A stretch of DNA of 29,044 nt from positions 1 to 29,044 of IMG/VR virus record IMGVR_UViG_3300034106_002653. One strand, given 5' to 3'. The notes under the pieces are model-generated. The model searched no databases. It was not told the DNA's origin and saw nothing but the letters and a program-made list of their open reading frames with translations. Source of the DNA: a virus. The translations under genes and the position numbers were made by a program. Positions 863 through 26,661 of the stretch are shown here, piece after piece (within the stretch, counting starts at the first letter, position 1; each line of letters starts with the position of its first letter).

Positions 863-1774
863 ATGAAGAAAATTATAATGGCAACTTTATTGATGGGGCT
901 AGTTTCAGTTGCTAGTGCTCAGGTAACAATAAACGGAAAAGTCAGCGCATTTGTTGATAACTCTAAAGTTGGTAATGGTTCTACCAGTACTCAACTTGTT
1001 ACTGAACCAACCAGCAACTTTGCACTATCAGTTAAAGAAAAAATGGGCCGTGATTTGTTTGCCCGAGCCACTGTAGAAACATCATTGAAGGGTAACACCT
1101 TTGGAGGTGATGATACTAGAGTTGGTGATCGTCAAGCAACAGTCGGTCTTGCCAATAAGTTTGGTAGTGTTGACTTAGGTCGCAATGTACACAGCCACTT
1201 CTTAGCAATCACTAAAAATGATGTTTTCGGAACATTGTATGGTAGTGTTGCAGGTGATGTACACAATCTACGCGGATTGCGTTTAGCAGATGCTGTATAT
1301 GCTACAATGGTTCCTGTTAAGGGTTCTGTAGTTGCGTATGAGCGTACACTAAATGGTCCTGGCGCAGACGCTGAAGTTTTTGCCGGCTCAACTAAAATCG
1401 CAAGATTACATGTTGATGTTGCACGTTTCCAACAAGGAACAGAAAAGAGCACAGTATTCGGTGCTCAAACTAAATTGATGGGAACTACAGTAGCGTATGT
1501 ATACAGCGACAACGAAGGTCTAGTAACTAGCAAAGGTCAAACGCTTGGTGTAGCACGTGATATGGGTCATATCACTGCAAAGGCAAGTTATGGCCGTACA
1601 AATACAGACACAACTGCTTACAATGTTGGTGCTGATTACAATTTAAGCAAGCGTACTGCTTTGCATGTTGTATATCGCAATGTTGATAGAAGTGCTGTAA
1701 GTTGTTTAGCTATTGGCTGTCCTGCAGCCAATGGTACTAGTGGATTTGGTGTTGGTGTAACACACAAGTTTTAA
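863..1774 (+). CDS. Outer-membrane porin, Gram-negative (Burkholderiales-type) general porin family
   Basis: The 303-residue protein starts with a classic Sec signal peptide (MKKIIMATLLMGLVSVASA, cleavage before QVTINGK) and ends in a terminal phenylalanine (VGVTHKF), the signal read by the BAM complex for beta-barrel insertion. The start QVTINGKVSAF, the alternating hydrophobic strands, and the glycine-rich turns (GSVDLGRN, VGLANKFGS, YNVGADYNLSKRTALHVVY) fit 16-strand general porins of betaproteobacteria. These are usually about 340-390 residues, so this one is short and probably has trimmed surface loops. The ribosome site is AAGGA at 851-855. The gene stands alone between two terminators, like a moron cassette. 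It probably forms an open pore in the host outer membrane. Selectivity, for example for phosphate, cannot be read from sequence. Family call is confident; role is inference. Confidence 0.88.
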   Translation: MKKIIMATLLMGLVSVASAQVTINGKVSAFVDNSKVGNGSTSTQLVTEPTSNFALSVKEKMGRDLFARATVETSLKGNTFGGDDTRVGDRQATVGLANKFGSVDLGRNVHSHFLAITKNDVFGTLYGSVAGDVHNLRGLRLADAVYATMVPVKGSVVAYERTLNGPGADAEVFAGSTKIARLHVDVARFQQGTEKSTVFGAQTKLMGTTVAYVYSDNEGLVTSKGQTLGVARDMGHITAKASYGRTNTDTTAYNVGADYNLSKRTALHVVYRNVDRSAVSCLAIGCPAANGTSGFGVGVTHKF

Positions 1775-1792
1775 TTTTATCTTTGCCAAAAT

Positions 1793-1819
1793 ACAAAAGG
1801 GGCCATTGGCCCCTTTTGT
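1793..1819 (+). terminator. Strong hairpin terminator after porin
   Basis: ACAAAAGGGGCC - ATT - GGCCCCTTTTGT forms a perfect 12-bp stem with a 3-base loop, A-rich on the 5' arm and T-rich on the 3' arm, so it could act on either strand. It separates the porin from pstS. Its 3' arm overlaps the first repeat of the candidate PHO box. Confidence 0.85.
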
Positions 1820-1843
1820 CATAAACTGTCACAATTTTGTCAT
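1816..1843 (+). promoter_or_regulatory. Candidate PHO box (PhoB-type direct repeats) upstream of pstS
   Basis: Three heptamers TTGTCAT (1816-1822), CTGTCAC (1826-1832) and TTGTCAT (1837-1843) follow each other with 10- and 11-base periods. The enterobacterial PHO box consists of CTGTCAT-like heptamers repeated at an 11-base period. The position, about 56 bases before the pstS start, suits activation by host PhoB under phosphate starvation. A possible -10 element overlaps TGTAAATA at 1863-1870. The repeat pattern is seen directly; PhoB binding is inferred. Confidence 0.65.
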
Positions 1844-1862
1844 AATTTCTTAACACTTTTTT

Positions 1863-1870
1863 TGTAAATA
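1863..1870 (+). promoter_or_regulatory. Late-promoter-like / possible -10 motif TGTAAATA before pstS
   Basis: TGTAAATAC lies 28 bases before the pstS ATG and matches the motif before the 12306 gene. It may be a weak late promoter or the -10 of a PhoB-activated promoter. Confidence 0.35.
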
Positions 1871-1898
1871 CAGTTGTTCAACACACAAGGAGACAAGT

Positions 1899-2888
1899 AT
1901 GAACAAAATAATTGCTATGGTATTAGCAGCCGTATCATTCACGGCACACGCACAGACAATTAATGGAGCCGGGGCAACATTCCCGGCTCCGCTTTATGCT
2001 AAGTGGGCAGATGCCTATAATAAAGAAACTGGTATTAGATTAAATTATCAAAGTGTAGGATCAGGTGCAGGCATAAGACAAATTGAAGCCAAGACAGTAG
2101 CGTTCGGTGCAAGTGATATGCCATTAAAAGACGACAAATTATCTAGCATGGGTGCAACACAGTTCCCTACAGTAATTGGTGGAGTAGTACCTGTCATTAA
2201 TCTGAAAGAAGTCAAGCCTGGCGAAATGAAACTCACCGGACAAGTAATTGCAGATATCTATTTAGGTAAGATTAAAAAGTGGGATGATCCTGCTATTGCA
2301 AACCTTAATCCATCATTAAAACTACCCAATCAAGATATTGCTGTAGTTCGTCGTGCAGATGGTAGCGGCACGACATTCTTATGGACAAACTATCTAAGCA
2401 AAGTTAATAGCGAATTTAAAGAAACAATTGGAGAAGGTACTGCTGTTAACTGGAAAGTTGGTGTAGGTGGCAAGGGTAATGAGGGCGTTAGTGCTATGGT
2501 TCGTCAACTACCCGGTGCACTAGGTTATGTTGAGTATGCTTATGTCAAACAAACTAAAATGAATTGGGTGCAGATGCAGAATAAAGATGGTCAGTGGGTA
2601 GCTCCTGATGATTTAACATTCAAGGCTGCGGCAGCAAATGCTACATGGGAAAAAACATTTTTCCAAGTATTAACTGATCAACCTGGCAGGACTGCATGGC
2701 CTGTTACAGGTGCCACATTCATCATCATGTATCTAAAGAATGACAAACCACAAGAAGCACAAGAAGCATTAAAATTCTTTAGATGGGCTTTTGCTAAGGG
2801 CGATAAGATGGCAGAAGAACTTGATTATGTTCCTCTACCAGACAGTGTTGTAGCGTTAGTAGAAAAAGAAATAAGTAAAATTAAATAA
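1899..2888 (+). CDS. pstS: Phosphate ABC transporter periplasmic phosphate-binding protein PstS
   Basis: The 329-residue protein has a signal peptide (MNKIIAMVLAAVSFTAHA, then QTINGAGATF). Its length is close to E. coli PstS (346). Phosphate-contacting segments of the family are all present: GAGATFPAPLYAKW near the mature N-terminus, the GSGAGIRQIE loop, GASDMPLKDD, and RADGSGTTFLWTNYLS, which carries the Arg and Ser/Gly/Thr ligands. It would bind Pi in the periplasm and hand it to the host PstCAB transporter, since no transporter genes are visible here. The ribosome site is AAGGAG at 1887-1892. A candidate PHO box lies upstream and a terminator downstream. Phage-carried pstS is well known in marine cyanophages. 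Here it sits next to lipid-remodelling-type genes, which strengthens a phosphate-starvation role. Confidence 0.96.
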   Translation: MNKIIAMVLAAVSFTAHAQTINGAGATFPAPLYAKWADAYNKETGIRLNYQSVGSGAGIRQIEAKTVAFGASDMPLKDDKLSSMGATQFPTVIGGVVPVINLKEVKPGEMKLTGQVIADIYLGKIKKWDDPAIANLNPSLKLPNQDIAVVRRADGSGTTFLWTNYLSKVNSEFKETIGEGTAVNWKVGVGGKGNEGVSAMVRQLPGALGYVEYAYVKQTKMNWVQMQNKDGQWVAPDDLTFKAAAANATWEKTFFQVLTDQPGRTAWPVTGATFIIMYLKNDKPQEAQEALKFFRWAFAKGDKMAEELDYVPLPDSVVALVEKEISKIK

Positions 2889-2892
2889 ACCG

Positions 2893-2930
2893 ACCACAAG
2901 ATAAGGTGGTGCTGGATATCCGTAACCAGC
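2893..2930 (+). other. Two abutting hairpins in the pstS 3' untranslated region
   Basis: ACCAC (2893-2897) pairs with GTGGT (2906-2910), and GCTGG (2911-2915) pairs with CCAGC (2926-2930). The stems directly abut each other and the terminator stem that starts at 2931, so all three could stack coaxially. They may stabilise the pstS mRNA 3' end. No known RNA family is recognised. Confidence 0.45.
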
Positions 2931-2951
2931 AGGCCCGAAAGGGCCTTTTTT
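2931..2951 (+). terminator. Rho-independent terminator after pstS
   Basis: AGGCCC - GAAA - GGGCCT followed by a T run: a 6-bp GC-rich stem with a GNRA tetraloop. This is a textbook intrinsic terminator ending the pstS transcript. Confidence 0.9.
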
Positions 2952-2977
2952 TATAATAGGTTTGTAATTAATAACAC

Positions 2978-2985
2978 GATAAATA
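2978..2985 (+). promoter_or_regulatory. Late-promoter-like motif GATAAATA before plcP-like gene
   Basis: GATAAATA ends only 5 bases before the ATG at 2991, and no Shine-Dalgarno fits between. A transcript from a T4-type late promoter would start at or next to the start codon, giving a leaderless mRNA. Confidence 0.55.
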
Positions 2986-2990
2986 TTCGT

Positions 2991-3839
2991 ATGACACCAA
3001 AGACTTATCGCGCCATTTTTGTCAGTGATGTTCATTTAGGCACTAGAGATAGTAAAGCCGAACAACTAAATAATTTTCTCAAGCACAACACTTGTGAAAC
3101 ATTGTACTTAGTGGGTGATATTTTGGATGTTTGGCGTATACAGCAAAACAAATGGCGCTGGAAGCAAAGCCATACTAATGTTGTCAGACGAATATTAGGT
3201 CATGCTAAACGTGGTACTCGCGTGATTTATGTGGCAGGCAATCATGATGAATTTTTACGACCACTCATGCCTTATAATATCGGCTTTGGTAATGTTGAAG
3301 TAACCAACCAAACTGAACACATAGGTGTAGATGGCAAACATTATCTTGTAATACACGGAGATTTATTTGATGGAATTACTAGATTAGCGCCGTGGTTAGC
3401 ATTTTTAGGTGACAAAGCATACGATGTGGTATTATGGTTAAACAACAAGTTCAATTGGTGGCGTCATAAATTTGGATTTGGTTATTGGAGTTTGAGTCAA
3501 TATTTGAAACAGCGAGTGAAAAAGGCTGTTGACTTTATATTTCAGTTTGAAAAAAATTTAGTTGCTTATTGTAAGAAGCGTGGTTTTGATGGTGTGATCT
3601 GTGGGCACATTCATCATGCTGAAATAAAAGAAATTGATGGCATTGTTTATATGAATGATGGCGACTGGGTAGAATCTATGACTGCATTGGTTGAACACCA
3701 CGATGGCCACTGGGAAATCGTAATTTGGACTAAGGAGAGTGACAATGTGGTTACTAATTTTGATAGCAGTACACATAAACAATCCCGCCGACGTGCCGGG
3801 CAAAGCAGTGATAAAATTTCAGACACAGACGGAGTGTGA
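2991..3839 (+). CDS. plcP: Calcineurin-like metallophosphoesterase, PlcP-type phospholipase C / LpxH-like
   Basis: The 282-residue protein carries the full binuclear-metal set: D13 and H15 in SDVHLG, D43 in VGDILD, N84/H85 in GNHDE, H122 in HGD, and H206/H208 in GHIHH. Databases often label this family UDP-2,3-diacylglucosamine diphosphatase (LpxH-like). The same family includes PlcP of Sinorhizobium and marine heterotrophs, a phospholipase C that degrades phospholipids to diacylglycerol under phosphate starvation. Two context points favour PlcP: pstS is just upstream, and the GT4 gene downstream resembles the partner often adjacent to plcP in bacteria. The last ~30 residues, after WEIVIWTKES, extend past the usual family end and overlap the start of the next gene. 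There is no signal peptide, so it is likely cytosolic or membrane-peripheral. The enzyme class is sure; PlcP rather than LpxH is an inference. Confidence 0.8.
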   Translation: MTPKTYRAIFVSDVHLGTRDSKAEQLNNFLKHNTCETLYLVGDILDVWRIQQNKWRWKQSHTNVVRRILGHAKRGTRVIYVAGNHDEFLRPLMPYNIGFGNVEVTNQTEHIGVDGKHYLVIHGDLFDGITRLAPWLAFLGDKAYDVVLWLNNKFNWWRHKFGFGYWSLSQYLKQRVKKAVDFIFQFEKNLVAYCKKRGFDGVICGHIHHAEIKEIDGIVYMNDGDWVESMTALVEHHDGHWEIVIWTKESDNVVTNFDSSTHKQSRRRAGQSSDKISDTDGV

Positions 3840-3957
3840 ACAGGCATTAAAATCAGTAGAATACTGGTTAAAGTTTGATAGTTTTAAGATACAAGGAGGT
3901 TGTTATGAAAGTAAGAAAGTTGATCAAAAAACATTACAAGGCTTGCGTCCAGCATAA
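3745..3957 (+). CDS. Small protein with hydrophobic N-terminus, unknown function
   Basis: A 70-residue protein read in another frame from within the 3' end of the metallophosphoesterase gene, overlapping it by 95 bases. ATG 3745 is preferred over the GTG at 3739 because AAGGAG (3732-3737) sits 7 bases upstream. The N-terminus MWLLILIAVHI is hydrophobic and could be a short membrane anchor or signal. The rest is hydrophilic, with a cysteine in TECEQAL and another in GGCYES. No family is recognised. It lies between plcP and the glycosyltransferase and would be co-transcribed with both, so a membrane-associated accessory role is possible but unproven. Confidence 0.6.
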   Translation: MWLLILIAVHINNPADVPGKAVIKFQTQTECEQALKSVEYWLKFDSFKIQGGCYESKKVDQKTLQGLRPA

Positions 3958-4036
3958 TCAAGCTCGGGAAAAAAAGACTTGGTTAAAACTTTTAAAGAAA
4001 AGTCTACATCATAAACATACAGAATCTATAAAGTGA
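3905..4036 (+). CDS. Very small basic protein (43 residues), unknown
   Basis: ATG 3905 follows a near-perfect ribosome site AAGGAGGT (3893-3900). The frame runs 43 codons to TGA at 4034-4036, which overlaps the GTG start of the glycosyltransferase (GTGA). The product is very rich in lysine and histidine (start MKVRKLIKKHYKACV, end KHTESIK), with one tryptophan. It begins inside the 3' end of the preceding 70-residue gene in another frame. The strong ribosome site and the coupled stop/start argue for real translation. Alternatively it may act mainly as a leader that couples translation of the glycosyltransferase. No family is recognised. Confidence 0.55.
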   Translation: MKVRKLIKKHYKACVQHNQAREKKTWLKLLKKSLHHKHTESIK

Positions 4037-5031
4037 AAACTATACTGATTATAACTGATAATTTACCAAATCAAATAAATGGTGTCGTTACAACCTACAA
4101 AAATATTGAGGCTATGGCGCTTCACGACAATTATCGTGTTGTTTTTATTGATCCCGGGAGGTTCCGCTATATTGGTTGCCCTGGCTACAACGAAGTCAAG
4201 ATTGCCTTTCCCAGGAAGATCGGCCAGGCGATTGAGAAGATATCTCCGGATCATATCCATATCGCCACCGAAGGTCCTGTGGGTTTGTGTGCTAGACAAT
4301 ATCTTGACAAACACGGTTATCGCTACAATACTGCTTATCATACTAAGTTTCCAGAAGGAATTAGAAAGTTATTTGGAATACCTGAAAGTATTACTTGGCC
4401 TTTAGTTAGATGGTTTCACAAACATTCAGGTAAAGTATTGACCACCACTGACAGTATGGTGAATGAACTGCGTGAGCATGGATTTGATGGAGAAATTGTT
4501 AGCTGGACTAGAGGCGTTGATAGAAAGGTTTTTAATTCTTCTCAAAGAAATAGAAATGACGATGTTAAATTGTTGGTCTGTGTAAGCCGAGTTAGTAAAG
4601 AAAAAAATCTAGAAGATTTCTTTAAATTAGAATATCCTAACAGTTATAAAATAATGGTAGGGGATGGACCAATGTTGGAAACATATAAGAAGAAATACCC
4701 CGATATACAATTTGTAGGTTTTAAAACAGGTCATGAATTGGCATATTACTATGCTAATGCTGATGTATTTGTTTTTCCAAGTCAATGGGAAACATTTGGT
4801 ATTGTTATGATAGAAGCAATGGCATGCGGTACACCGGTGGCAGCATATAGATGTCAGGGACCAATGGATGTAATTGACGAGGGTATCACTGGCTATATGG
4901 AACAAGAGTTATCTATTGCAATCCAGCGTTGTTTGCATTTGGATAGGCAGATAGTTTTAAATGGAAGTCAACGATGGAGTTGGCAACAGGCTTGGGAAAT
5001 ATTTAAAAACAACTTAGTCCCTATCAAGTAA
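4033..5031 (+). CDS. agt: GT4-family glycosyltransferase, Agt-like (diacylglycerol glycosyltransferase candidate)
   Basis: The 332-residue protein starts at GTG 4033, overlapping the preceding stop. It has the GT-B two-domain layout: an N-terminal acceptor domain (TDNLPNQINGVVTTYKN, then HIATEGPVGLCAR and TAYHTKFPE) and a C-terminal nucleotide-sugar domain (VCVSRVSKEKN, VGDGPML, and the E-x7-E motif in WETFGIVMIEAMACGTP). The N-terminal pattern matches bacterial GT4 enzymes encoded beside PlcP, including Agrobacterium-type Agt, which glycosylates diacylglycerol under phosphate limitation. The sugar donor (UDP-Glc or UDP-GlcA) cannot be told. With PlcP it would turn phospholipid into phosphorus-free glycolipid. 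It could instead modify LPS. A stretch at about 4150-4290 is visibly GC-richer than the rest. The GT4 call is sure, the Agt role is inferred. Confidence 0.82.
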   Translation: MKTILIITDNLPNQINGVVTTYKNIEAMALHDNYRVVFIDPGRFRYIGCPGYNEVKIAFPRKIGQAIEKISPDHIHIATEGPVGLCARQYLDKHGYRYNTAYHTKFPEGIRKLFGIPESITWPLVRWFHKHSGKVLTTTDSMVNELREHGFDGEIVSWTRGVDRKVFNSSQRNRNDDVKLLVCVSRVSKEKNLEDFFKLEYPNSYKIMVGDGPMLETYKKKYPDIQFVGFKTGHELAYYYANADVFVFPSQWETFGIVMIEAMACGTPVAAYRCQGPMDVIDEGITGYMEQELSIAIQRCLHLDRQIVLNGSQRWSWQQAWEIFKNNLVPIK

Positions 5032-5053
5032 TATACGACTATATTGAGACGGA

Positions 5054-5061
5054 AATAAATA
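5054..5061 (+). promoter_or_regulatory. Late-promoter-like motif AATAAATA before hldC-like gene
   Basis: AATAAATAC ends 8 bases before ATG 5070, without a Shine-Dalgarno in between. It follows the same near-leaderless arrangement as at 2978 and 21915. Confidence 0.5.
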
Positions 5062-5069
5062 CCTCTACT

Positions 5070-5456
5070 ATGGTATTAGTGAACGGCACCTTTGATATTA
5101 TACACTCTGGGCATTTGGCACTATTAAATTACGCTAAGTCTTTGACTGATAATTTGGTCGTAGCGATTGATTCTGATCGTAGAGTTAAAGAATTAAAAGG
5201 ATCATCAAGACCTATCAATTCACAAGACGAACGCAAATTACTGCTAGAAAATCTCAAAGCTGTTGACAAAGTTGTAATATTTGATTCGGACCAAGAATTG
5301 ATAGCATTGGTAGAACAATGTGATATTATGGTAAAGGGTAGTGACTATATCGGAAAACCCATTGTCGGTGAATATTTTTGTAGGGAAATTATTTTCTTTG
5401 ATAGATTAGATGGATACTCAACAACAGAAAAAATTCACAGTATTATTAATCGGTGA
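5070..5456 (+). CDS. hldC: Heptose-1-phosphate adenylyltransferase-like cytidylyltransferase (HldE C-domain / HldC type)
   Basis: A 128-residue single-domain nucleotidyltransferase. NGTFDIIHSGH (residues 5-15) carries the HxGH catalytic motif, and GYSTTEKI near the C-terminus is the family's closing signature. It matches the RfaE/HldE domain II family, which transfers AMP from ATP to heptose 1-phosphate to make ADP-heptose. The length is typical for a stand-alone domain. The HldA-like kinase that follows overlaps it by 47 bases in another frame, so the two halves of a normal HldE are separate here and in inverted order. The exact sugar is uncertain. A glycerol-3-phosphate cytidylyltransferase would also carry HxGH, but the kinase neighbour favours the heptose type. 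Confidence 0.82.
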   Translation: MVLVNGTFDIIHSGHLALLNYAKSLTDNLVVAIDSDRRVKELKGSSRPINSQDERKLLLENLKAVDKVVIFDSDQELIALVEQCDIMVKGSDYIGKPIVGEYFCREIIFFDRLDGYSTTEKIHSIINR

Positions 5457-6162
5457 CAGTTGTATTGATGAGTACCACTTTGGTACTGTTGATAGAATTA
5501 GTCCTGAAGCACCTGTGCCTGTTTTCAAACTGACTAAAAAAATATCTAAGCCGGGCATGGCAGCAAATGTAAAAGAAAACTTATTGATGCTAGGATTAGA
5601 TGTTTGCTTTGTGACCAAAGGTAATTCAACTAAGATAAGATTAATTGACGCTAAAAGCAAGCAGCATATCGTTAGAGTTGACGATGATATAAAGTCTGAT
5701 CCACTAACTATAAATGAAATTTCAATAGACTTACACAACATTGATGCCGTTGTCGTTAGTGATTACAACAAAGGATTAGTAACTTATGATTTGGTAAAAT
5801 CTATCAGGAAGAAATATTTAGGTCCTATTTTTATAGATACCAAAAAACATGACCTCAAAGAGTTTGAAGGTTGTGTTGTAAAGATAAACGAAACAGAATT
5901 TTCAAAAGCAAACAGCACAACCAGTTCACTTATAGTGACACAAGGAAACAAAGGTTGTACATATAACGGTGTGCAGTTTCCTGCCCGTGAAACTGAAGTA
6001 GTAGATGTTACTGGGTGCGGAGATACTTTTTTGGCTGCGTTAGTGTTTATGTTTTTAGAAACCAATGATATAGTTAAAGCAATTGAGTTTGCCAATAAAG
6101 CTGCAAGTGTAACAGTTCAACATTTGGGCGTGTATGCACCCAAATTAGAGGAAATAAAATGA
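5410..6162 (+). CDS. hldA: PfkB-family sugar kinase, HldE N-domain (HldA) type
   Basis: A 250-residue ribokinase-fold protein. Its start GDSCIDEYHFG...RISPEAPVPV is the hallmark of the HldE/RfaE kinase domain, followed by GMAANVKENL. The catalytic loop is DVTGCGDTF (residues 199-207), where D205 is the expected base; the usual GAGDT is GCGDT here. The E. coli kinase domain is about 318 residues, so this form is shortened, mainly in the middle. It would phosphorylate heptose 7-phosphate at C1, upstream of the HldC-like step. GmhA is not seen, so a host intermediate may be used. ATG 5410 lies inside hldC and no later start preserves the GDSCID motif. The following cupin starts 4 bases before its end (ATGA). 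Confidence 0.84.
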   Translation: MDTQQQKKFTVLLIGDSCIDEYHFGTVDRISPEAPVPVFKLTKKISKPGMAANVKENLLMLGLDVCFVTKGNSTKIRLIDAKSKQHIVRVDDDIKSDPLTINEISIDLHNIDAVVVSDYNKGLVTYDLVKSIRKKYLGPIFIDTKKHDLKEFEGCVVKINETEFSKANSTTSSLIVTQGNKGCTYNGVQFPARETEVVDVTGCGDTFLAALVFMFLETNDIVKAIEFANKAASVTVQHLGVYAPKLEEIK

Positions 6163-6515
6163 GACTAGAAGGATTCGTTGAGAAAGGTTGGGGGCATGAA
6201 TTTATATTTGCTACCAATGAAAAGTATTGTGGTAAGCTTTTAAAGTTTAACAAAGATGCTAAGTTTAGCATGCACTTTCATGCCGAGAAAGATGAATCGT
6301 GGTATATATTGAGTGGTAAATTTAAAATAGTTTTTATTGAAACAAAAGATGCCAGCATACATGACATTATACTTGAACAGGGTGCAACATGGCGCAATAG
6401 ACCTTTACAACCGCATCAGGTAATTTGTTTAGAAGAAGGTACAATCATTGAAGTAAGCACGCCTGATAGTGTTGAAGATAATTACCGAGTACTACCCGGA
6501 GATAGCCAAAAGTGA
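6159..6515 (+). CDS. Cupin-domain protein, sugar-phosphate isomerase-like
   Basis: A 118-residue single cupin. KFSMHFHAEKDESWYILSG is cupin motif 1 (metal-binding His-x-His and Glu), and WRNRPLQPHQVICLEEGTIIEVS is motif 2 with the third histidine. The overall pattern, starting with EKGWGHEFIFATNEKYCGKLL, resembles the cupin half of type II phosphomannose isomerases and related sugar cupins. It probably binds a metal and a sugar phosphate or nucleotide sugar. It is translationally coupled to the kinase upstream (ATGA) and to the HAD gene downstream, so a shared sugar pathway is likely. The reaction is not determined. Confidence 0.7.
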   Translation: MRLEGFVEKGWGHEFIFATNEKYCGKLLKFNKDAKFSMHFHAEKDESWYILSGKFKIVFIETKDASIHDIILEQGATWRNRPLQPHQVICLEEGTIIEVSTPDSVEDNYRVLPGDSQK

Positions 6516-20058: not shown

Positions 20059-21900
20059 ATGGAACCAAATCCCAGCAATGTAAGTCCCTGGTACTTACGA
20101 AACATCAACCAGGCACTAGCCTTAGATGAAGCCTCAGGTAATGTGTATGTTAGAACCGGGTTTACTGGCAATATTGTTATTGATGGAAACGTCAACATTC
20201 CTGGGAATGTTGACTCACATGTTTCACAAATTGGAACAAGTGGTGAATTAACAGTTCCTTGGATGCCGGTCAGTATAGACGGCAACAGCAATGTTACTAT
20301 ATCAGGTGGTAATGTCAATGCCATAGTAACAGGTACTGTAGCAGTTAGTAGTATTACAGGAAATATTGCGGGTATCACAGGTAATGTTACGGTAGTAGAT
20401 GGTGGCGGTAGTCTTACTATTGACGGCAATGTCGGTGTGACAGGTAATGTTAATATCGGCACTATGCCTAATGTTAATGCCAGTGTGTCAGGAAATGTAG
20501 GTGTAACAAGTTTAGGTAATGTTGTTCTAACAGGTAATACTCTACCAGTAAGTGGTAATGTTGGTGTTACAGGTAATGTCAATATAGGCACGATGCCCAA
20601 TGTCAACGCTAACATCACTGGTGGTAATGTAACAGTGCAGCAAGGTACTAGTCCTTGGGTAGTGTCAGGTAATGTCAACGCAACATTAGACAGTAATGCC
20701 AATGTTATTATTTCAGGATTTAGCGGAGCAACAAGTGACGCATTTGGTCGTTTGCGTGTAAGCAATCCCTATACACTATTTGATACCAACAGTCGTTATT
20801 ACGACCATCAACAGTTTAGTAGTGCTATCAATGGTATAGCAAATGTTGTTTATGTAGCTAACCAAAGTAGTTTTCAACTCAATGTGGGGTCATCTGTGAA
20901 CGATAGTGTGATAAGAGAAACAATGAAAGTATTTCCTTATCAGCCAGGTAAGAGCCAACTAACATTGCTTACATTCTGTATGAATACACCAAAAACAAAT
21001 CTACGCCAGCGTGTGGGATTGTTTGGTGCTAATGATGGTGTATTCTTTGAAAACGATGGCACATATAACTATATGGTCATTCGTTCAGCATCTACTGGTG
21101 TAGAAGAAAGAGTAAGACAAGATGCTTGGAATGGTGATAGATTGAACGGTGCAGGTGGTGCTAACAATCCATCAGGTATTACATTATATCCAAATCGCAC
21201 ACAGATTTATTACGCTGATGTTGAGTGGTTGGGTGTAGGTAATGTACGTGTGGGATTTATCATTAACGGGCAGTATATTATATGCCACACATTCCAACAC
21301 GCTAATCAAACTGGCAATACCAAAGTGTATATGACTACGGCTACATTGCCGATTCGTTATGAGATTACTAACACGGGTGCAACTGCCGGTGCTAGTCAAA
21401 TGACACAAATTTGTAGCACTGTTATTAGTGAAGGTGGTTATAATAGTTTTGGTACTACTCAAAGCGCTGGTACAGGTACTACAGCAAAACGTCTGTCCAA
21501 CGCCAACACTTATTATCCTATTGTTAGCATTAAATTAAACTCCAGCAGATTGGACAGTATAGTATTTCCCCGACAGATTGACGTACTGAGTCCTAGTGTA
21601 AACTACTATCGTTGGGTATTGTTACAGAATCCAACACTGACTGGTGCTACTTTTGCTTCTACTAGCCCCACTGGCACGGTAGACATTGACTTAGCGGCTA
21701 CTGCTATATCAGGTGGAATAGAAATTCAGTCAGGCTACGCTGCCAGCAGAGAACTTGCACAACTCAGTGCTGTGGATTATTTTCAGTTTCAGTTAGGTAG
21801 AACTTTAGCCGGCGTCAGTGATGTTGTTACATTAGCGATTGCCGCTACCGCAAACAACGCTGATGTGTTGGCTGAACTAGGTTGGCAAGAATTAACTTAA
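20059..21900 (+). CDS. Virion structural protein with N-terminal GNV repeats (613 residues)
   Basis: Residues ~30-225 are built of glycine/asparagine/valine repeats (GNVNIPGNV, ITGNVTV, SGNVGVTGNVNIGTMPNVNA), the kind of repeat that forms beta-helix-like shafts in phage fibres. The rest (~230-613) is a globular beta-rich domain with AFGRLRVSNPYTLFDTNS, TMKVFPYQPGKSQL, GLFGANDGVFFENDGT and a C-terminal DYFQFQLGRTL. This two-part form (repeat shaft plus globular head) is seen in putative structural proteins of aquatic T4-like phages. No enzymatic motif is present. It lacks introns or breaks. Exact place in the virion unknown. Confidence 0.75.
   Translation: MEPNPSNVSPWYLRNINQALALDEASGNVYVRTGFTGNIVIDGNVNIPGNVDSHVSQIGTSGELTVPWMPVSIDGNSNVTISGGNVNAIVTGTVAVSSITGNIAGITGNVTVVDGGGSLTIDGNVGVTGNVNIGTMPNVNASVSGNVGVTSLGNVVLTGNTLPVSGNVGVTGNVNIGTMPNVNANITGGNVTVQQGTSPWVVSGNVNATLDSNANVIISGFSGATSDAFGRLRVSNPYTLFDTNSRYYDHQQFSSAINGIANVVYVANQSSFQLNVGSSVNDSVIRETMKVFPYQPGKSQLTLLTFCMNTPKTNLRQRVGLFGANDGVFFENDGTYNYMVIRSASTGVEERVRQDAWNGDRLNGAGGANNPSGITLYPNRTQIYYADVEWLGVGNVRVGFIINGQYIICHTFQHANQTGNTKVYMTTATLPIRYEITNTGATAGASQMTQICSTVISEGGYNSFGTTQSAGTGTTAKRLSNANTYYPIVSIKLNSSRLDSIVFPRQIDVLSPSVNYYRWVLLQNPTLTGATFASTSPTGTVDIDLAATAISGGIEIQSGYAASRELAQLSAVDYFQFQLGRTLAGVSDVVTLAIAATANNADVLAELGWQELT
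20431..20610 (+). repeat. Direct repeat in structural gene, 51-base units
   Basis: Two 51-base copies, 20431-20481 and 20560-20610, both encode VGVTGNVNIGTMPNVNA. They differ mostly at third codon positions, so protein sequence has been kept while DNA drifted. This fits shaft-repeat growth by duplication. Confidence 0.8.
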
Positions 21901-21914
21901 TAGGTTAATGCCCA

Positions 21915-21922
21915 AATAAATA
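21915..21922 (+). promoter_or_regulatory. Late-promoter-like motif AATAAATA before terminase N-part
   Basis: AATAAATAC ends 6 bases before ATG 21929, with no Shine-Dalgarno between; a transcript from it would be nearly leaderless. Confidence 0.55.
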
Positions 21923-21928
21923 CTCACT

Positions 21929-22852
21929 ATGAGTAACGCACCTTCCTTAGTTAAGGATCCATACACCAAAACTGTCTTTAAGACGGATAAAGAACTACAG
22001 GACTTTATCAAGTGTTGTGATCCTGATACCGGTTATCTATATTTTATGGATAACTTCTTTTATATTCAACATCCTACTAAGGGCAGTATGTTGTATCACC
22101 CATGGGATTATCAAAAAAAGTTAATTCACACATATCACAATTATAGATATTCTATTTCATTGATGCCACGACAGAGTGGTAAGTCAACAAGTGCAGCTGG
22201 ATATCTATTGTGGTATGCTATGTTTGTACCAGACAGTACAATTCTTATTGCGGCACATAAGTACACCGGCGCACAGGAAATTATGCAGCGTATTCGCTAT
22301 GCATATGAAAACTGTCCCGATCATATTAAGGCAGGCGTGACTACTTATAATAAAGGGTCCCTCGATTTTGAGAATGGTTCTAGAATCGTGTCAGCAACCA
22401 CGACAGAAAATACAGGTCGTGGTATGTCTATTTCATTGCTATACTTAGACGAGTTTGCATTCGTTAGACCTTCCATTGCTGAATTATTTTGGACTTCTAT
22501 CACGCCTACCTTATCTACTGGTGGTAAAGCAATTATTACAAGTACTCCAAACAGTGATGAAGATCAATTTGCATTGATTTGGAAAGGTGCCAACAAAACA
22601 CTAGATGAGTATGGAAATGAAACTGAACTAGGAATTAACGGCTTTAAATCATATCGGGCTTATTGGAATGAACAGCCCGGTCGTGATCAGAAATGGGCTG
22701 ATGAAATGAAAGCCCAGTTGGGTGAAGATAGATTTAACCGAGAAATTGGTTGTTTTGCACCAAGTACCAGAATGACTCTTAGAGATTCATCCGGTAATAT
22801 TATTACTGCTACCATGGCAGAATTGGAGAAAATGCTAAATGGTGATAAATAA
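21929..22852 (+). CDS. Terminase large subunit, N-terminal (ATPase) part fused to intein N-fragment
   Basis: A 307-residue protein. Residues 1-274 are the T4 gp17-type ATPase domain: Walker A RQSGKST (81-87), Walker B LYLDEFAF (D174/E175) and the coupling motif TSTPN (205-209). At C275, after the conserved NREIG, the extein stops and a 33-residue intein N-fragment begins (CFAPSTRMTLRDSSGN, ending in LEKMLNGDK and TAA). C275 is intein residue 1, the first splicing nucleophile. The nuclease half of the terminase is encoded separately at 23565. The missing residues GCEF..., where a T4 terminase continues, resume exactly at the intein C-fragment junction. The ATPase powers DNA packaging into the prohead. 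Confidence 0.92.
   Translation: MSNAPSLVKDPYTKTVFKTDKELQDFIKCCDPDTGYLYFMDNFFYIQHPTKGSMLYHPWDYQKKLIHTYHNYRYSISLMPRQSGKSTSAAGYLLWYAMFVPDSTILIAAHKYTGAQEIMQRIRYAYENCPDHIKAGVTTYNKGSLDFENGSRIVSATTTENTGRGMSISLLYLDEFAFVRPSIAELFWTSITPTLSTGGKAIITSTPNSDEDQFALIWKGANKTLDEYGNETELGINGFKSYRAYWNEQPGRDQKWADEMKAQLGEDRFNREIGCFAPSTRMTLRDSSGNIITATMAELEKMLNGDK
22751..22849 (+). other. Split-intein N-fragment (IntN, 33 residues)
   Basis: It starts at the TGT for Cys1 (22751-22753) and runs to the stop at 22850. It holds intein block A (CFAPSTRMTLRDSSGN) only. The break just after block A matches the atypical split site known from the AceL-TerL intein (short IntN, long IntC) rather than the usual split near residue 100. 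The domain limits are exact at the 5' end; the 3' end is simply the end of the gene. Confidence 0.88.
22844..22851 (+). promoter_or_regulatory. Late-promoter-like motif GATAAATA at the end of IntN
   Basis: GATAAATA spans the stop codon of the terminase N-gene. A T4-type start 6-7 bases downstream would begin the mRNA at the hairpin 22857-22886, giving the endonuclease gene its own transcript. Confidence 0.45.
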
Positions 22853-22856
22853 AAGT

Positions 22857-22900
22857 GTAGTTCGCGGGACGGCAATCCCCAACTACTCTAACGCTATAGA
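22857..22900 (+). promoter_or_regulatory. Paired hairpins before the homing endonuclease gene
   Basis: GTAGTT (22857-22862) pairs with AACTAC (22881-22886), with GGGA/TCCC (22866-22869/22876-22879) inside. A second small stem, TCTA (22887-22890)/TAGA (22897-22900), directly touches the ribosome site GGAG (22901-22904). Such structures could restrict translation of the endonuclease on long transcripts. Confidence 0.45.
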
Positions 22901-22912
22901 GGAGCAATCAGC

Positions 22913-23587
22913 ATGACTATTTATTCACCGCACAAAATTCCTGACGGATATTATGTTTATGCATATCTGAGGGAAAATGGAACACCTTATTACATTGGCA
23001 AAGGCAAAAATAAACGTGCCTGGCAATTACATGAAAATATTAAACGACCTTTATATAAAAACATTGTTATATTAGAACAGGGACTTACGGAAGTAGAAGC
23101 TATTTCATTAGAATGCCAAATGATACAGTTATACGGTAGAAAAGATTTAGGTACGGGTATATTAAGAAATAGAACTGACGGCGGAGAAGGAACTACAAAT
23201 AGTATTCCGTGGAATAAGGGGTTAAGATTACCTGGTCACGGTGGCCGTAATAAAGGAACATTATGGTCAGATGACGAGAGAGAATCTCAGCGCAAAGCAA
23301 GATTCAACCCAAACTACTATAATTATTTAAAAGATCCTATTAGGTGTAAGAATATAAGCGTTGCTCAAAAGGGCAGAGTAGGCATAAACCTGGGTAAAAA
23401 ATGGTATAACAATGGGGTCAATGAATTTTATGGGGATACTATACCGGCTGGATTTAACGCAGGACGATTGATAACCAACCAATCAAGAAAAGGATTGAAG
23501 TGGTTTAATAATGGAGTAGAAAATCGTCAATTTAGGGAAGGATCTCAACCTGAGGGGTTCGTATATGGTAGAATTACTAAAAAATAA
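22913..23587 (+). CDS. GIY-YIG homing endonuclease, free-standing between intein halves
   Basis: The 224-residue protein has an N-terminal GIY-YIG nuclease domain: YYVYAYL (GIY position), PYYIGKG (YIG), the arginine in KNKRAWQLH, and the catalytic glutamate in SLECQMIQLYG, then NRTDGGEG. A NUMOD3-like central part (WNKGLRLPGHGGRNKG, VAQKGRVG) and two C-terminal DNA-binding-type repeats (KKWYNNGVNEFYG...GFNAGR and LKWFNNGVENRQF...GFVYGR) follow. These are typical of phage homing endonucleases. The gene lies exactly where an endonuclease domain would sit in an unsplit intein. It would cut an intein-free terminase gene and so spread the element. Its 3' end overlaps the IntC gene by 23 bases and encodes the IntC ribosome site. 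Preceded by GGAG. Confidence 0.92.
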   Translation: MTIYSPHKIPDGYYVYAYLRENGTPYYIGKGKNKRAWQLHENIKRPLYKNIVILEQGLTEVEAISLECQMIQLYGRKDLGTGILRNRTDGGEGTTNSIPWNKGLRLPGHGGRNKGTLWSDDERESQRKARFNPNYYNYLKDPIRCKNISVAQKGRVGINLGKKWYNNGVNEFYGDTIPAGFNAGRLITNQSRKGLKWFNNGVENRQFREGSQPEGFVYGRITKK

Positions 23588-23897
23588 ATTAGGTTTAGAA
23601 GTGTTGACGGATACCGGTTGGCAGACATTTGAAGGTCTTGTTAACAAAGGAGCTATGCATACTATAATAGTAAATTTAGAAAATACTCAATTAACTCTGA
23701 CTCCTGATCATGAGGTATTTACAGATTCTTTTACAAAATTAAAAGCAGAACAGCTTACACCAGGAATTCAGGTCAGAACAGTAACTGGTTTGCAAAAGGT
23801 ATTATCAGTAAAGGAAAATGCTATTGAAATAGTATATGACCTTGTGAATGTTGGAACTAATAGAAGATTCTATGCCAACGGGATACTATGTTCCAAT
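23565..23897 (+). other. Split-intein C-fragment (IntC, 111 residues)
   Basis: It runs from the start codon to the AAT of Asn111 (23895-23897). The +1 extein residue is Cys (TGC 23898-23900). Together with the 33-residue IntN it makes a 144-residue mini-intein without an endonuclease domain. The sequence lacks any LAGLIDADG or HNH insertion, as expected when the endonuclease is encoded separately. Confidence 0.88.
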
Positions 23898-24623
23898 TGC
23901 GAATTTATTATTGCAGATGAAACATTAATCAATCCTAATACTTTAATTCAATTAGAAGGTGTAGAGCCTATTCATAGAATGGGTCAAATCCGATGGTATA
24001 AGAAACCCGAGAAAGGTAATATATATGTTGTAGGGCTAGATCCAAGCTTGGGCACCGGCGGTGATCCATCAGCTATACAAATATTTGAAGCAAATACTAC
24101 TACGCAAATAGGAGAATGGAAGCATAATAAAACTGACATTCCTAGTCAAATCAAACTTATAGCAGATATCAACAAATATATTGTAGAATGCACTAATGAA
24201 CCTAACAGTCTTTATTACAGTATAGAAAATAATAGTATAGGTGAAGCCGCACTAATTTCATTGAATGAATACGGTGAAAGTAACATTCCTGGCATCTTTT
24301 TGTCCGAGCCCGGTAAAAAGCGCAAAGGTTTCAATACTACACAAAAGGTAAAACTAGCTGCATGTGCTAAATTTAAAACATTGCTAGAAAGCAAAAAAAT
24401 GAAGGTTCATAGTAAATCATTGATTAGTGAACTTAAAAGCTTTATAGCTAATGGTGGCAGCTATGCAGCTAAAATCGGGGATACCGACGATTTGGTCATG
24501 GCCGCACTTCTTGTAGTCAGAATTTTACAGCAATTGAGTGATTATCATTATAATTTAGAAGCACAAATCAAGGATCATGATGAAATCATTGCTCCTCTGC
24601 CCTTCTTTGCCGTAATTAGTTGA
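23565..24623 (+). CDS. Intein C-fragment fused to terminase large subunit C-terminal (nuclease) part
   Basis: A 352-residue protein. Residues 1-111 are the intein C-fragment, with block B TLTPDHEVF (TxxH) and blocks F/G VYDLVNVG...RRFYANGILCSN. Splicing would occur between N111 and C112, where the terminase resumes as CEFIIADETLI. Residues 112-352 are the RNase H-like nuclease of gp17-type terminases: D159 in GLDPS, E221 in SIENNS, D308/D309 in GDTDDLV. The start ATG 23565 lies in the endonuclease gene; GAGGGG (23552-23557) is 7 bases upstream. Joined with the N-part it would give a 515-residue terminase. The usual penultimate His is Ser, and the usual block-F His is Arg, unusual for an active intein. 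Confidence 0.92.
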   Translation: MVELLKNKLGLEVLTDTGWQTFEGLVNKGAMHTIIVNLENTQLTLTPDHEVFTDSFTKLKAEQLTPGIQVRTVTGLQKVLSVKENAIEIVYDLVNVGTNRRFYANGILCSNCEFIIADETLINPNTLIQLEGVEPIHRMGQIRWYKKPEKGNIYVVGLDPSLGTGGDPSAIQIFEANTTTQIGEWKHNKTDIPSQIKLIADINKYIVECTNEPNSLYYSIENNSIGEAALISLNEYGESNIPGIFLSEPGKKRKGFNTTQKVKLAACAKFKTLLESKKMKVHSKSLISELKSFIANGGSYAAKIGDTDDLVMAALLVVRILQQLSDYHYNLEAQIKDHDEIIAPLPFFAVIS

Positions 24624-24629
24624 TAAATA
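24622..24629 (+). promoter_or_regulatory. Late-promoter-like motif GATAAATA before the 24637 gene
   Basis: GATAAATAC overlaps the terminase stop and ends 7 bases before ATG 24637, again with no room for a Shine-Dalgarno. Confidence 0.55.
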
Positions 24630-24636
24630 CAATACT

Positions 24637-26661
24637 ATGCCAATTAGCAATAATTCTTTAAACAACCGTCTATACGACCTACTGAAAGTTCAAGGATTTG
24701 ATCCTGTTCCAAAAAATAGTAAGGGAGAGACGATTCCAGTTAGTGATGATGCAGATGTGATTAAATTTACCTACAAACAAGATGGTAAAGAAATCGGACC
24801 TGCATGGGTGACAGTTGATGGTAATCAACAATTAAAAGTATATTACGATAACAAGTTACTAAACACATTAAAAGAAGATGACATGAATCCTAAAAGTTTC
24901 ATGGATTTTTTAATACAATTGAAAAAATGGGCGCAACGCCGTCAATTAGGATTTCAAACAATTAACCAAGACCGCTTATCTGATGATATGTCTAAGAGGG
25001 AATATATGAAGCAAAAAGAAAAAATTTCTGAGGGATACTACCCAATGGGTAAAAGTGCTAGCTACAATGATGCAATTCCTACTGTTAAAATTGTACTACA
25101 GCACACACGCCAAATACAAGAAGGCGAACAAAGATTTAGAAATATTGCTAAAATCTTTTTAGAGAATAGTCAAGGTGAAAGAATATTAGCCCCAACTACT
25201 CGTCCAGGAATCGCACAAGTTTATGCTAGACATTTGGCAGAAGGCGGAATACCAAACGATGAGCGTTGGAATCATATCAAGAGCCTTTGTGAAGAATATA
25301 GTAAGATGGCAGGCTTTGTCCGTGCTGTTCGCGGCAATCAGTTCAATGAAAGTGCTCAGAAATTAGTTGAAGCAGGTCTTGGTCACTATCAAAGTTTGCG
25401 TGAGTCATTGAGCAAGATGCGCGGCAGTCGTGGATACAACGCATATTTTGAAAGCTGGACTCCTACATTAATGGAGACTGAAAATGATGAATCTAATTTA
25501 AACGAATTATTCGTACAAGAAACACTAGATCCAAGAATTGAAAGTGTGATGCCAATTCTTAGCAAACTAAGTAAGAACTTAGGTGAGATGAAGGAAGTTA
25601 GTGAGTTGGCAGAATGGGCAGATAACTTGCTAGAAGGCGGCGACGGTGGTGAAGCCAGCGAAGAAACTGATGTTTATACAGCAGGTGACGCAGGCGAAGG
25701 TGGTGCAGAAGATAATCCATTAGATGAAGCTGCAGGTGCAGAAACATTAGCACACAATCAGGCAACTGAAAAATCTAGATTAGATGCATTTGATTTAGAC
25801 GAAGCTGACGATGCAGAAGTTGCACACAAGAAAACTCAAATGCCTGCATTTATGCGTAAGCAAAGTGGCGATCCTGACTGGAAGACAACTACAAAAGATT
25901 TAGAAAAAGCTAAAGAGCGTAACATCAGCGGTAAAGAAGGTTTAGCCGCATTGACAAAACGCTTAGATCAAATTGATGAACAAGAAGTTGAAGAAAGCGG
26001 TCTACAAGCATATCTTGGTAACAAGAAGTATGGTAAAGAAGGTATGGACGCATTGCGTCAAGCAGGTAGAGATGGTGCTAGCAAAGAAAAAATGGCAAAG
26101 ATCCGTGCCAAGTATGACAAGTTAGATGAAGTAAGTGTGGCGGAAGGGTTAGATTCAGAAAAAAAAGCAAGACTTAAAGACCTAATTGATGCATATAGTG
26201 ATGCAACTGATCCTGAGTATATGGGTGACGAGGACTCTGACGATATTATTGCACAAATTCGTGCAGAGTTTGGTGACAGCACTGCCGATAGCATTGTTAA
26301 CGGTCCTAGTATGCATTTCCCAAGACCTGGTCATTCAATGGGTCACGATGACTTAGAGTTTAGACAAATGCGTAAAAACATGTCACCTAATAGAATAACT
26401 AAATTAGGTAAACTTCACAAACAAGATAGTGATGCAATGAAGCGTGACATTAAAAGTAAACTTGATGTGGAAGAGGATTTAGACGCCAACCAAAAGCGTG
26501 TAGGTCAATTAGGCCCATACGAAAAGGTAGGACCAAAAGGTGCAATGGGCAAGTTAGTTGGTGCTAATGAAAATTTCATTAATACTGATGCACAAGCTGT
26601 AGTCACAGAAAACGATCCAGATGAATTACAAGAACTAAAGGCTTTACTAAAAAGAGTATGA
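24637..26661 (+). CDS. Large acidic protein, probable virion or prohead-associated protein (674 residues)
   Basis: The N-terminal third (RLYDLLKVQGFDPVPKNSKG, FMDFLIQLKKWAQRRQLGF, KISEGYYPMGKSASYNDAIP) continues with a conserved-looking helical block (VLQHTRQIQEGEQRFRNIAK, APTTRPGIAQVYARHLAEGG). I recognise it as a protein found next to the terminase in aquatic T4-like phages, without known function. The C-terminal half is low-complexity and strongly acidic (GGDGGEASEETDVYTAG, AEDNPLDEAAGAETL), with repeated short helices. Several (I/L)-x-E sites, such as ISE and LAE, could be cut by a prohead protease. An internal or scaffold-like role is an inference. The gene ends TGA at 26659, 3 bases before the fibre gene start. 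Confidence 0.68.
   Translation: MPISNNSLNNRLYDLLKVQGFDPVPKNSKGETIPVSDDADVIKFTYKQDGKEIGPAWVTVDGNQQLKVYYDNKLLNTLKEDDMNPKSFMDFLIQLKKWAQRRQLGFQTINQDRLSDDMSKREYMKQKEKISEGYYPMGKSASYNDAIPTVKIVLQHTRQIQEGEQRFRNIAKIFLENSQGERILAPTTRPGIAQVYARHLAEGGIPNDERWNHIKSLCEEYSKMAGFVRAVRGNQFNESAQKLVEAGLGHYQSLRESLSKMRGSRGYNAYFESWTPTLMETENDESNLNELFVQETLDPRIESVMPILSKLSKNLGEMKEVSELAEWADNLLEGGDGGEASEETDVYTAGDAGEGGAEDNPLDEAAGAETLAHNQATEKSRLDAFDLDEADDAEVAHKKTQMPAFMRKQSGDPDWKTTTKDLEKAKERNISGKEGLAALTKRLDQIDEQEVEESGLQAYLGNKKYGKEGMDALRQAGRDGASKEKMAKIRAKYDKLDEVSVAEGLDSEKKARLKDLIDAYSDATDPEYMGDEDSDDIIAQIRAEFGDSTADSIVNGPSMHFPRPGHSMGHDDLEFRQMRKNMSPNRITKLGKLHKQDSDAMKRDIKSKLDVEEDLDANQKRVGQLGPYEKVGPKGAMGKLVGANENFINTDAQAVVTENDPDELQELKALLKRV

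What the first reader, a model, noticed from the sequence alone, without database searches (positions are those of the whole stretch)
23850..23900. Intein C-fragment lacks both usual helper histidines
The block-F His is Arg (NRRFYAN) and the penultimate block-G His is Ser (LCSN followed by Cys). Asn111 and Cys+1 are kept, as is block B TxxH. Inteins without the penultimate His exist but need compensating residues, so either chemistry is altered or splicing is slow. It is a candidate for a new catalytic variant.
Basis: partly seen in the sequence, partly recalled or inferred. Interest (0 to 1): 0.6.

Follow-up and report, generated by a model that had tools for sequence, protein, structure and literature searches.

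The report
Split terminase intein without helper histidines
A phage DNA-packaging gene is broken into two halves that are probably rejoined at the protein level by a split intein; this intein lacks both histidines that usually help the last cutting step, but so do many of its relatives, so it looks like a stable, working variant of a known kind rather than a defect or a new chemistry.

Summary
In the 111-aa C-intein (23565-23897) the block F position F:13 is Arg100 and the penultimate residue G:6 is Ser110; Asn111, Cys+1 and block B TPDH are kept. It belongs to a naturally split class 1 intein in a phage terminase large subunit (TerL): a 33-aa N-intein (22751-22849), a GIY-YIG-like homing endonuclease gene in the gap, then the C-intein. 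Empty-site relatives put the insertion exactly at ...REIG^CEF. "New catalytic variant" is only partly supported. At this TerL site 88 of 93 distinct alleles lack the penultimate His (72 Ser, 15 Lys, 1 Asn) and 40 of 93 lack both histidines, including unsplit versions. The Ser is held while its codon changed at least 23 times; the block F residue changed between His and non-His at least 14 times. Both intein halves are under purifying selection (dN/dS about 0.1). Published work shows neither His is universally needed. What remains open is how Asn cyclizes when both are missing; I found no splicing assay for this family. By-product: a covarying hairpin plus GATAAATA-like motif precedes endonuclease genes in at least 120 viral stretches.

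The parts
21929..22750 (+). TerL N-extein (ATPase part, 274 aa)
   Evidence: Pfam Terminase_6N E=2e-15; continuous in intein-free relatives with the C-extein
22751..22849 (+). N-intein, 33 aa, begins with Cys1 (CFAPSTRMTLRD...), block A; stop at 22850-22852
   Evidence: Boundary set by intein-free relatives (REIGCEF) and by contiguous mini-inteins L016, L027, L085
22844..22851 (+). GATAAATA, candidate late-type promoter of the endonuclease cassette; overlaps the last codons of the N-intein
   Evidence: Found 5 times on + and 0 on - in the window, each just before a gene; ATAAATA conserved upstream of the hairpin elsewhere
22857..22886 (+). Hairpin GUAGUUCGCGGGACGGCAAUCCCCAACUAC upstream of the endonuclease gene
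   Evidence: Covarying inner stem in 63 distinct copies
22913..23587 (+). GIY-YIG-like homing endonuclease ORF (224 aa) in the gap between the intein halves
   Evidence: phrog_314 homing endonuclease E=1.5e-6; motif GYYVYAYLRENGTPYYIGKG
23565..23897 (+). C-intein, 111 aa (blocks B, F, G); start overlaps the endonuclease ORF
   Evidence: PDB matches VidaL 5e-7 and CatC 2.5e-6
23700..23711 (+). Block B T46-P-D-H49
   Evidence: invariant T, D, H in A1
23838..23840 (+). Block F Asp92 (F:4), invariant
23862..23864 (+). Arg100 (F:13), normally His
23865..23867 (+). Arg101 (F:14), nearly invariant in this family
   Evidence: 67 of 72 penultimate-Ser alleles
23892..23894 (+). Ser110 (G:6), normally His
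   Evidence: 72 of 93 same-site alleles have Ser; all four TCN codons used
23895..23900 (+). Asn111 (G:7) and Cys+1
   Evidence: invariant in A1
23898..24623 (+). TerL C-extein (RNase H-like nuclease part)
   Evidence: Pfam Terminase_6C E=4.7e-6

Best explanation
This is a functional, naturally and atypically split class 1 intein (33-aa N-part, 111-aa C-part) that trans-splices the two halves of a phage terminase large subunit. A homing-endonuclease cassette sits at the split point. Splicing should follow the standard route: Cys1 thioester, transfer to Cys+1, Asn111 cyclization, S-N shift. The Asn step runs without the F:13 and G:6 histidines. Inferred, not shown: a small hydroxyl residue (Ser110) is the evolved default at G:6, the F:13 position mostly needs a basic or polar side chain (His, Arg, Lys, Asn), and Asp92 (F:4), Arg101 (F:14) and the block B Thr/His do the remaining positioning.
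For: Exact insertion in TerL shown by intein-free relatives. Full set of intein residues Cys1, B:TxxH, F:Asp, Asn, Cys+1. Unsplit versions of the same intein exist, one with the identical Arg/Ser pair (L071, NRRFYANDILCSNC) and others with Lys/Ser (L016, L085). AlphaFold model of L071 (pLDDT 89.8) gives a HINT fold, best Foldseek match VidaL 6vgv E=1e-10, TM 0.81; VIA Z 20.9. dN/dS of C-intein 0.11-0.17 in the closest pairs where dS is measurable. Ser kept through at least 23 codon changes on the tree; amino acid at G:6 changed only about 6 times among 91 alleles, F:13 His/non-His at least 14 times. Scans blind to the tail gave the same picture: 76 of 80 alleles without penultimate His. Literature: F:13 and G:6 His not required in all inteins (PMC4031507); penultimate Gly/Lys/Ser in mycobacteriophage inteins, and putting His back slowed one (PMC5050341); Npu DnaE IntC ends FIASN and splices with a half-life of about 1 min (PMC4031507); Cat-TerL is fast (PMC11766414) with ...DNLYYTNGIVSH, no F:13 His.
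Against: No splicing has been measured for any member of this family. Every characterised example cited keeps at least one of the two histidines. The tree rests on 111 columns and many forks are unresolved.
Confidence: 0.82

Rival explanations
1. A genuinely altered Asn-cyclization mechanism has evolved in this clade: a basic residue at F:13 plus Arg101 replaces His chemistry (charge stabilisation instead of proton transfer), so the double-loss inteins form a mechanistic subtype.
For: Among penultimate-Ser alleles without F:13 His, 27 of 39 have Arg or Lys; Lys and AGA-Arg are two or more base changes from His codons; F:14 Arg in 38 of 39.
Against: 9 of 39 have Asn, others Gln, Tyr, Ala, so a positive charge is not obligatory; F:14 Arg is about as common in His-bearing alleles (29 of 33); covariation test underpowered (about 6 independent pairs).
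Confidence: 0.3
2. The intein is degenerating or slow, and the two TerL chains work unjoined or with little joined product.
For: Two canonical helper residues are gone; TerL ATPase and nuclease halves are separable domains in principle.
Against: Purifying selection on both intein halves, invariant catalytic residues, Ser held through codon turnover, unsplit versions with the same residues in which failure to splice would leave an insert inside TerL.
Confidence: 0.08
3. The gap is an RNA intron rather than a split intein: the endonuclease ORF lies in a self-splicing intron and the intein is translated in one piece.
For: Phage ICP1 terL is spliced as RNA next to an endonuclease gene (PMC10448857); group I introns often carry GIY-YIG genes.
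Against: No intron family match in Rfam up to E=5; own start codons with Shine-Dalgarno-like GAGG before the endonuclease ORF and before the C-intein; three unrelated endonuclease types and gap lengths of 185-1032 nt fill the same place.
Confidence: 0.06

Closest known systems
Atypically split TerL inteins AceL-TerL, GOS-TerL and consensus Cat-TerL (CatC, PDB 6dsl)
   Same: TerL, short N-intein (25-37 aa) and about 104-115 aa C-intein; C-extein starts Cys-Glu; no His at F:13 in Cat (DNLYYTNGIVSH)
   Different: Cat keeps the penultimate His (SH before the mutated Asn); here it is Ser; sequence similarity is only weak (E=2.5e-6)
VidaL intein (PDB 6vgv)
   Same: Best fold and sequence match; Arg at F:14 (NHRYYGDGIVSH)
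   Different: Has both F:13 and G:6 His; 20% identity over the fold
Npu/Ssp DnaE split inteins
   Same: Penultimate residue not His (Ser in Npu, PDB 4lx3)
   Different: Keep block F His (DHNF); typical split site (long N, 36-aa C); Arg B:11 reported to assist in Ssp (PMC4031507), B:11 is Glu here and variable in the family
Mycobacteriophage class 1 inteins lacking penultimate His (PMC5050341)
   Same: Phage inteins with Gly, Lys or Ser at G:6; TerL is a favoured host gene
   Different: Other insertion sites; the block F His was proposed to take over there
Fractured genes (split intein halves flanking a homing endonuclease gene; Dassa et al. 2009, known to me and cited in PMC6892783)
   Same: Same gene order; some relatives here carry a DUF7487 / VSR-like (by my reading) endonuclease in the gap (L002, L054)
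   Different: Here a GIY-YIG-like gene fills the gap, in others HNH; the split lies between blocks A and B

Membership tests
Class 1 inteins | Cys/Ser/Thr at position 1 and +1, C-terminal Asn/Gln | tested here: met
   Cys1 (22751-22753), Asn111, Cys+1; invariant in relatives
Class 1 inteins | Block B Thr-x-x-His and block F Asp | tested here: met
   T46, H49, D92 invariant
Class 1 inteins | HINT fold | tested here: met
   AlphaFold model of the contiguous relative L071 with the same Arg/Ser pair; 6vgv TM 0.81, many inteins Z>15. The window's own two-chain complex was not modelled
Class 1 inteins | Helper His at F:13 and G:6 (usual, not obligatory, so not a bar to membership) | tested here: not met
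   Arg100 and Ser110; published as dispensable in some inteins
Atypically split TerL inteins | Split between blocks A and B with a short N-intein, in TerL | tested here: met
   33 + 111 aa, Terminase_6N and 6C flanks
Atypically split TerL inteins | Trans-splicing activity | not testable with these tools
   needs protein experiment
Group I/II intron (rival) | Conserved intron RNA core | tested here: not met
   no Rfam match to an intron in 21900-24700 up to E=5; divergent cores could be missed

The most novel reading that the evidence does not exclude
A large natural clade of phage inteins has dispensed with both histidines of Asn cyclization and kept splicing for a long time, using a Ser/basic-residue solution; it would be the first well-populated set for testing what Asn cyclization minimally needs.
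Probability: 0.35. Interest if true: 0.55.

Novelty: new variant of a known kind. Interest (0 to 1): 0.36.

Why it matters
The role of the two helper histidines is a standing question because mutating them has different effects in different inteins. Here nature offers dozens of alleles at one insertion site with the same scaffold and +1 residue, in which F:13 alternates His/Arg/Lys/Asn and G:6 is Ser, Lys or His, some split and some contiguous. That makes the contribution of each position directly testable by comparing close relatives. A 33-aa N-intein is also of a size useful for chemical protein labelling.

Tried and rejected
Searching for a hidden substitute His: His32 is not conserved. Arg at B:11, as in DnaE: position is Glu and variable in the family. 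Tree-aware covariation to find a compensating residue: only about 6 independent pairs, so no column could be decided; raw associations (Phe at F:15, Pro in block B) are confounded by clade. Intron reading: no Rfam match. The first distant-relative scan used a pattern containing SNCEFII, which favours Ser, so I repeated it with alignments cut before block F; one alignment was too diverse to scan. N-intein-only rows misaligned in A5 and were dropped. Dassa et al. 2009 could not be read.

Full report
What is there. ORF 21929-22852 encodes the ATPase part of a T4-type terminase large subunit (Terminase_6N, E=2e-15) and ORF 23565-24623 ends in the nuclease part (Terminase_6C, E=4.7e-6). Between them lies a 224-aa ORF (22913-23587) that matches homing-endonuclease families and carries a GIY-YIG-like motif. 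More than 50 related viral contigs have an uninterrupted TerL in which residue 274 of the first ORF is followed directly by Cys112 of the second, which fixes the intein ends: N-intein 33 aa (22751-22849), C-intein 111 aa (23565-23897). Unsplit versions of the same intein occur at the same TerL site in L016, L027, L071, L085, L125 and L134, 132-157 aa long.

The observation. The C-intein ends ...DLVNVGTNRRFYANGILCSN|CEF. Arg100 occupies F:13 and Ser110 occupies G:6; Asn111, Cys+1, block B TPDH and block F Asp92 are intact.

How unusual is it? In the first twelve aligned relatives Ser110, Arg101, Asp92, Asn111 and Cys112 are invariant, while position 100 is Lys, His or Arg. I collected relatives in four viral scans; the last two used alignments that stop before block F, so they cannot favour Ser. 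Of 93 distinct alleles at this TerL site the penultimate residue is Ser in 72, Lys in 15, His in 5, Asn in 1; 40 lack both histidines, 48 have only the block F His, 3 only the penultimate His, 2 both. In the tail-blind subset 76 of 80 lack the penultimate His and 31 of 80 lack both. At other insertion sites picked up by the same searches 27 of 31 keep the penultimate His. A few of the 93 (for example the Campylobacter phage intein) were assigned to the site by the C-extein motif only.

Selection. On a tree of 91 alleles built without the two positions, His/non-His at F:13 changed at least 14 times, the amino acid at G:6 about 6 times, and the Ser codon (TCA/TCC/TCT/TCG) at least 23 times among the Ser alleles. 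Pairwise dN/dS of the C-intein is 0.11-0.17 in the closest pairs (window-L001, window-L004, L001-L004, L005-L009), against near-saturated dS in the exteins. So Ser110 is maintained, position 100 is free to vary among a few residues, and the intein is not decaying. Among 39 Ser alleles without F:13 His, 15 have Arg, 12 Lys, 9 Asn, and one each Gln, Tyr, Ala; Arg at F:14 is near universal but about equally so in His-bearing alleles. A tree-aware search for a compensating column had too few independent changes to decide.

Fold. The predicted structure of the contiguous relative L071, which has the same Arg/Ser pair, is confident (pLDDT 89.8, pTM 0.83) and matches inteins throughout; the first Foldseek hit is VidaL (6vgv, E=1e-10, TM 0.81), also Z 20.9 by VIA-align. 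By sequence the window's own joined halves match VidaL (5e-7) and CatC (2.5e-6).

Known precedent. [quoted passage not shown] PMC5050341 reports Gly, Lys and Ser at G:6 in mycobacteriophage inteins, a Gly-to-His change that slowed splicing, and the proposal that a block F His can stand in. The Npu DnaE C-intein in the PDB ends GFIASN and splices with a half-life of about a minute (PMC4031507). Cat-TerL, a relative at a Cys-Glu C-extein, lacks the F:13 His and is among the fast inteins (PMC11766414). I found no published assay of an intein lacking both, but my literature access was limited to open papers.

Mechanism. Shown: gene anatomy, exact junctions, conservation of the catalytic set, fold by prediction on a relative, purifying selection. 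Inferred: trans-splicing itself, and that Asn cyclization is driven by positioning (Asp F:4, Arg F:14, block B) with Ser at G:6 and a mostly basic F:13 residue rather than by a His pair.

The split. The endonuclease in the gap is GIY-YIG-like in the window, L001, L004, L005, L007 and L008; HNH-like in L003, L013 and L018; and a DUF7487 nuclease (VSR-like by my reading) in L002, L012 and L054; in L009 only a remnant is left. Different endonucleases therefore have used the same break point. In the window the last codons of the N-intein overlap a GATAAATA motif followed by a hairpin, the start of an endonuclease cassette described under Noticed in passing.

Verdict. The double loss of histidines in a large, conserved natural set is the part worth an experiment.

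Noticed in passing
window 22844-22912; L301-L393 and others: A conserved element, ATAAATA-like motif + hairpin GTAGTTCGCGG-N-CCAACTACTCTAACGC + Shine-Dalgarno, sits mostly 22-26 nt before homing endonuclease genes. Of 60 downstream ORFs 34 match phrog_314 and 25 phrog_655, both homing endonucleases (GIY-YIG and HNH types). No Rfam match. It resembles in kind the hairpins known upstream of T4-type endonuclease genes (PMC2988022), but it does not cover the ribosome binding site.
   Followed up: yes
window 2978, 17934, 20027, 22844, 24622: GATAAATA occurs five times on the + strand and never on the - strand, each time shortly before a gene start: a candidate late promoter of this phage.
   Followed up: partly
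L024, L071, L105, L212, L215, L241, L261, L269, L273: A second TerL intein at the DEFA (Walker B) site, often ending His-Gln or Lys-Asn before Cys-Asp; L024 and L071 carry inteins at both TerL sites.
   Followed up: partly
L179, L182, L185, L197, L202, L208-L217, L220, L222, L230: Alleles at the same TerL site with penultimate Lys (VKN^CEF); 14 of the 15 distinct Lys alleles keep the block F His, unlike the Ser alleles.
   Followed up: partly
window 863-6515: Run of host-like genes in this viral contig: Gram-negative porin, phosphate-binding-type PBP (PstS-like), metallophosphoesterase, glycosyltransferase, cytidylyltransferase and PfkB kinase (RfaE-like halves), cupin.
   Followed up: no
L009 3762-4011: Endonuclease cassette reduced to a 185-nt remnant between intact intein halves: the intein stays split after losing its endonuclease.
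   Followed up: no
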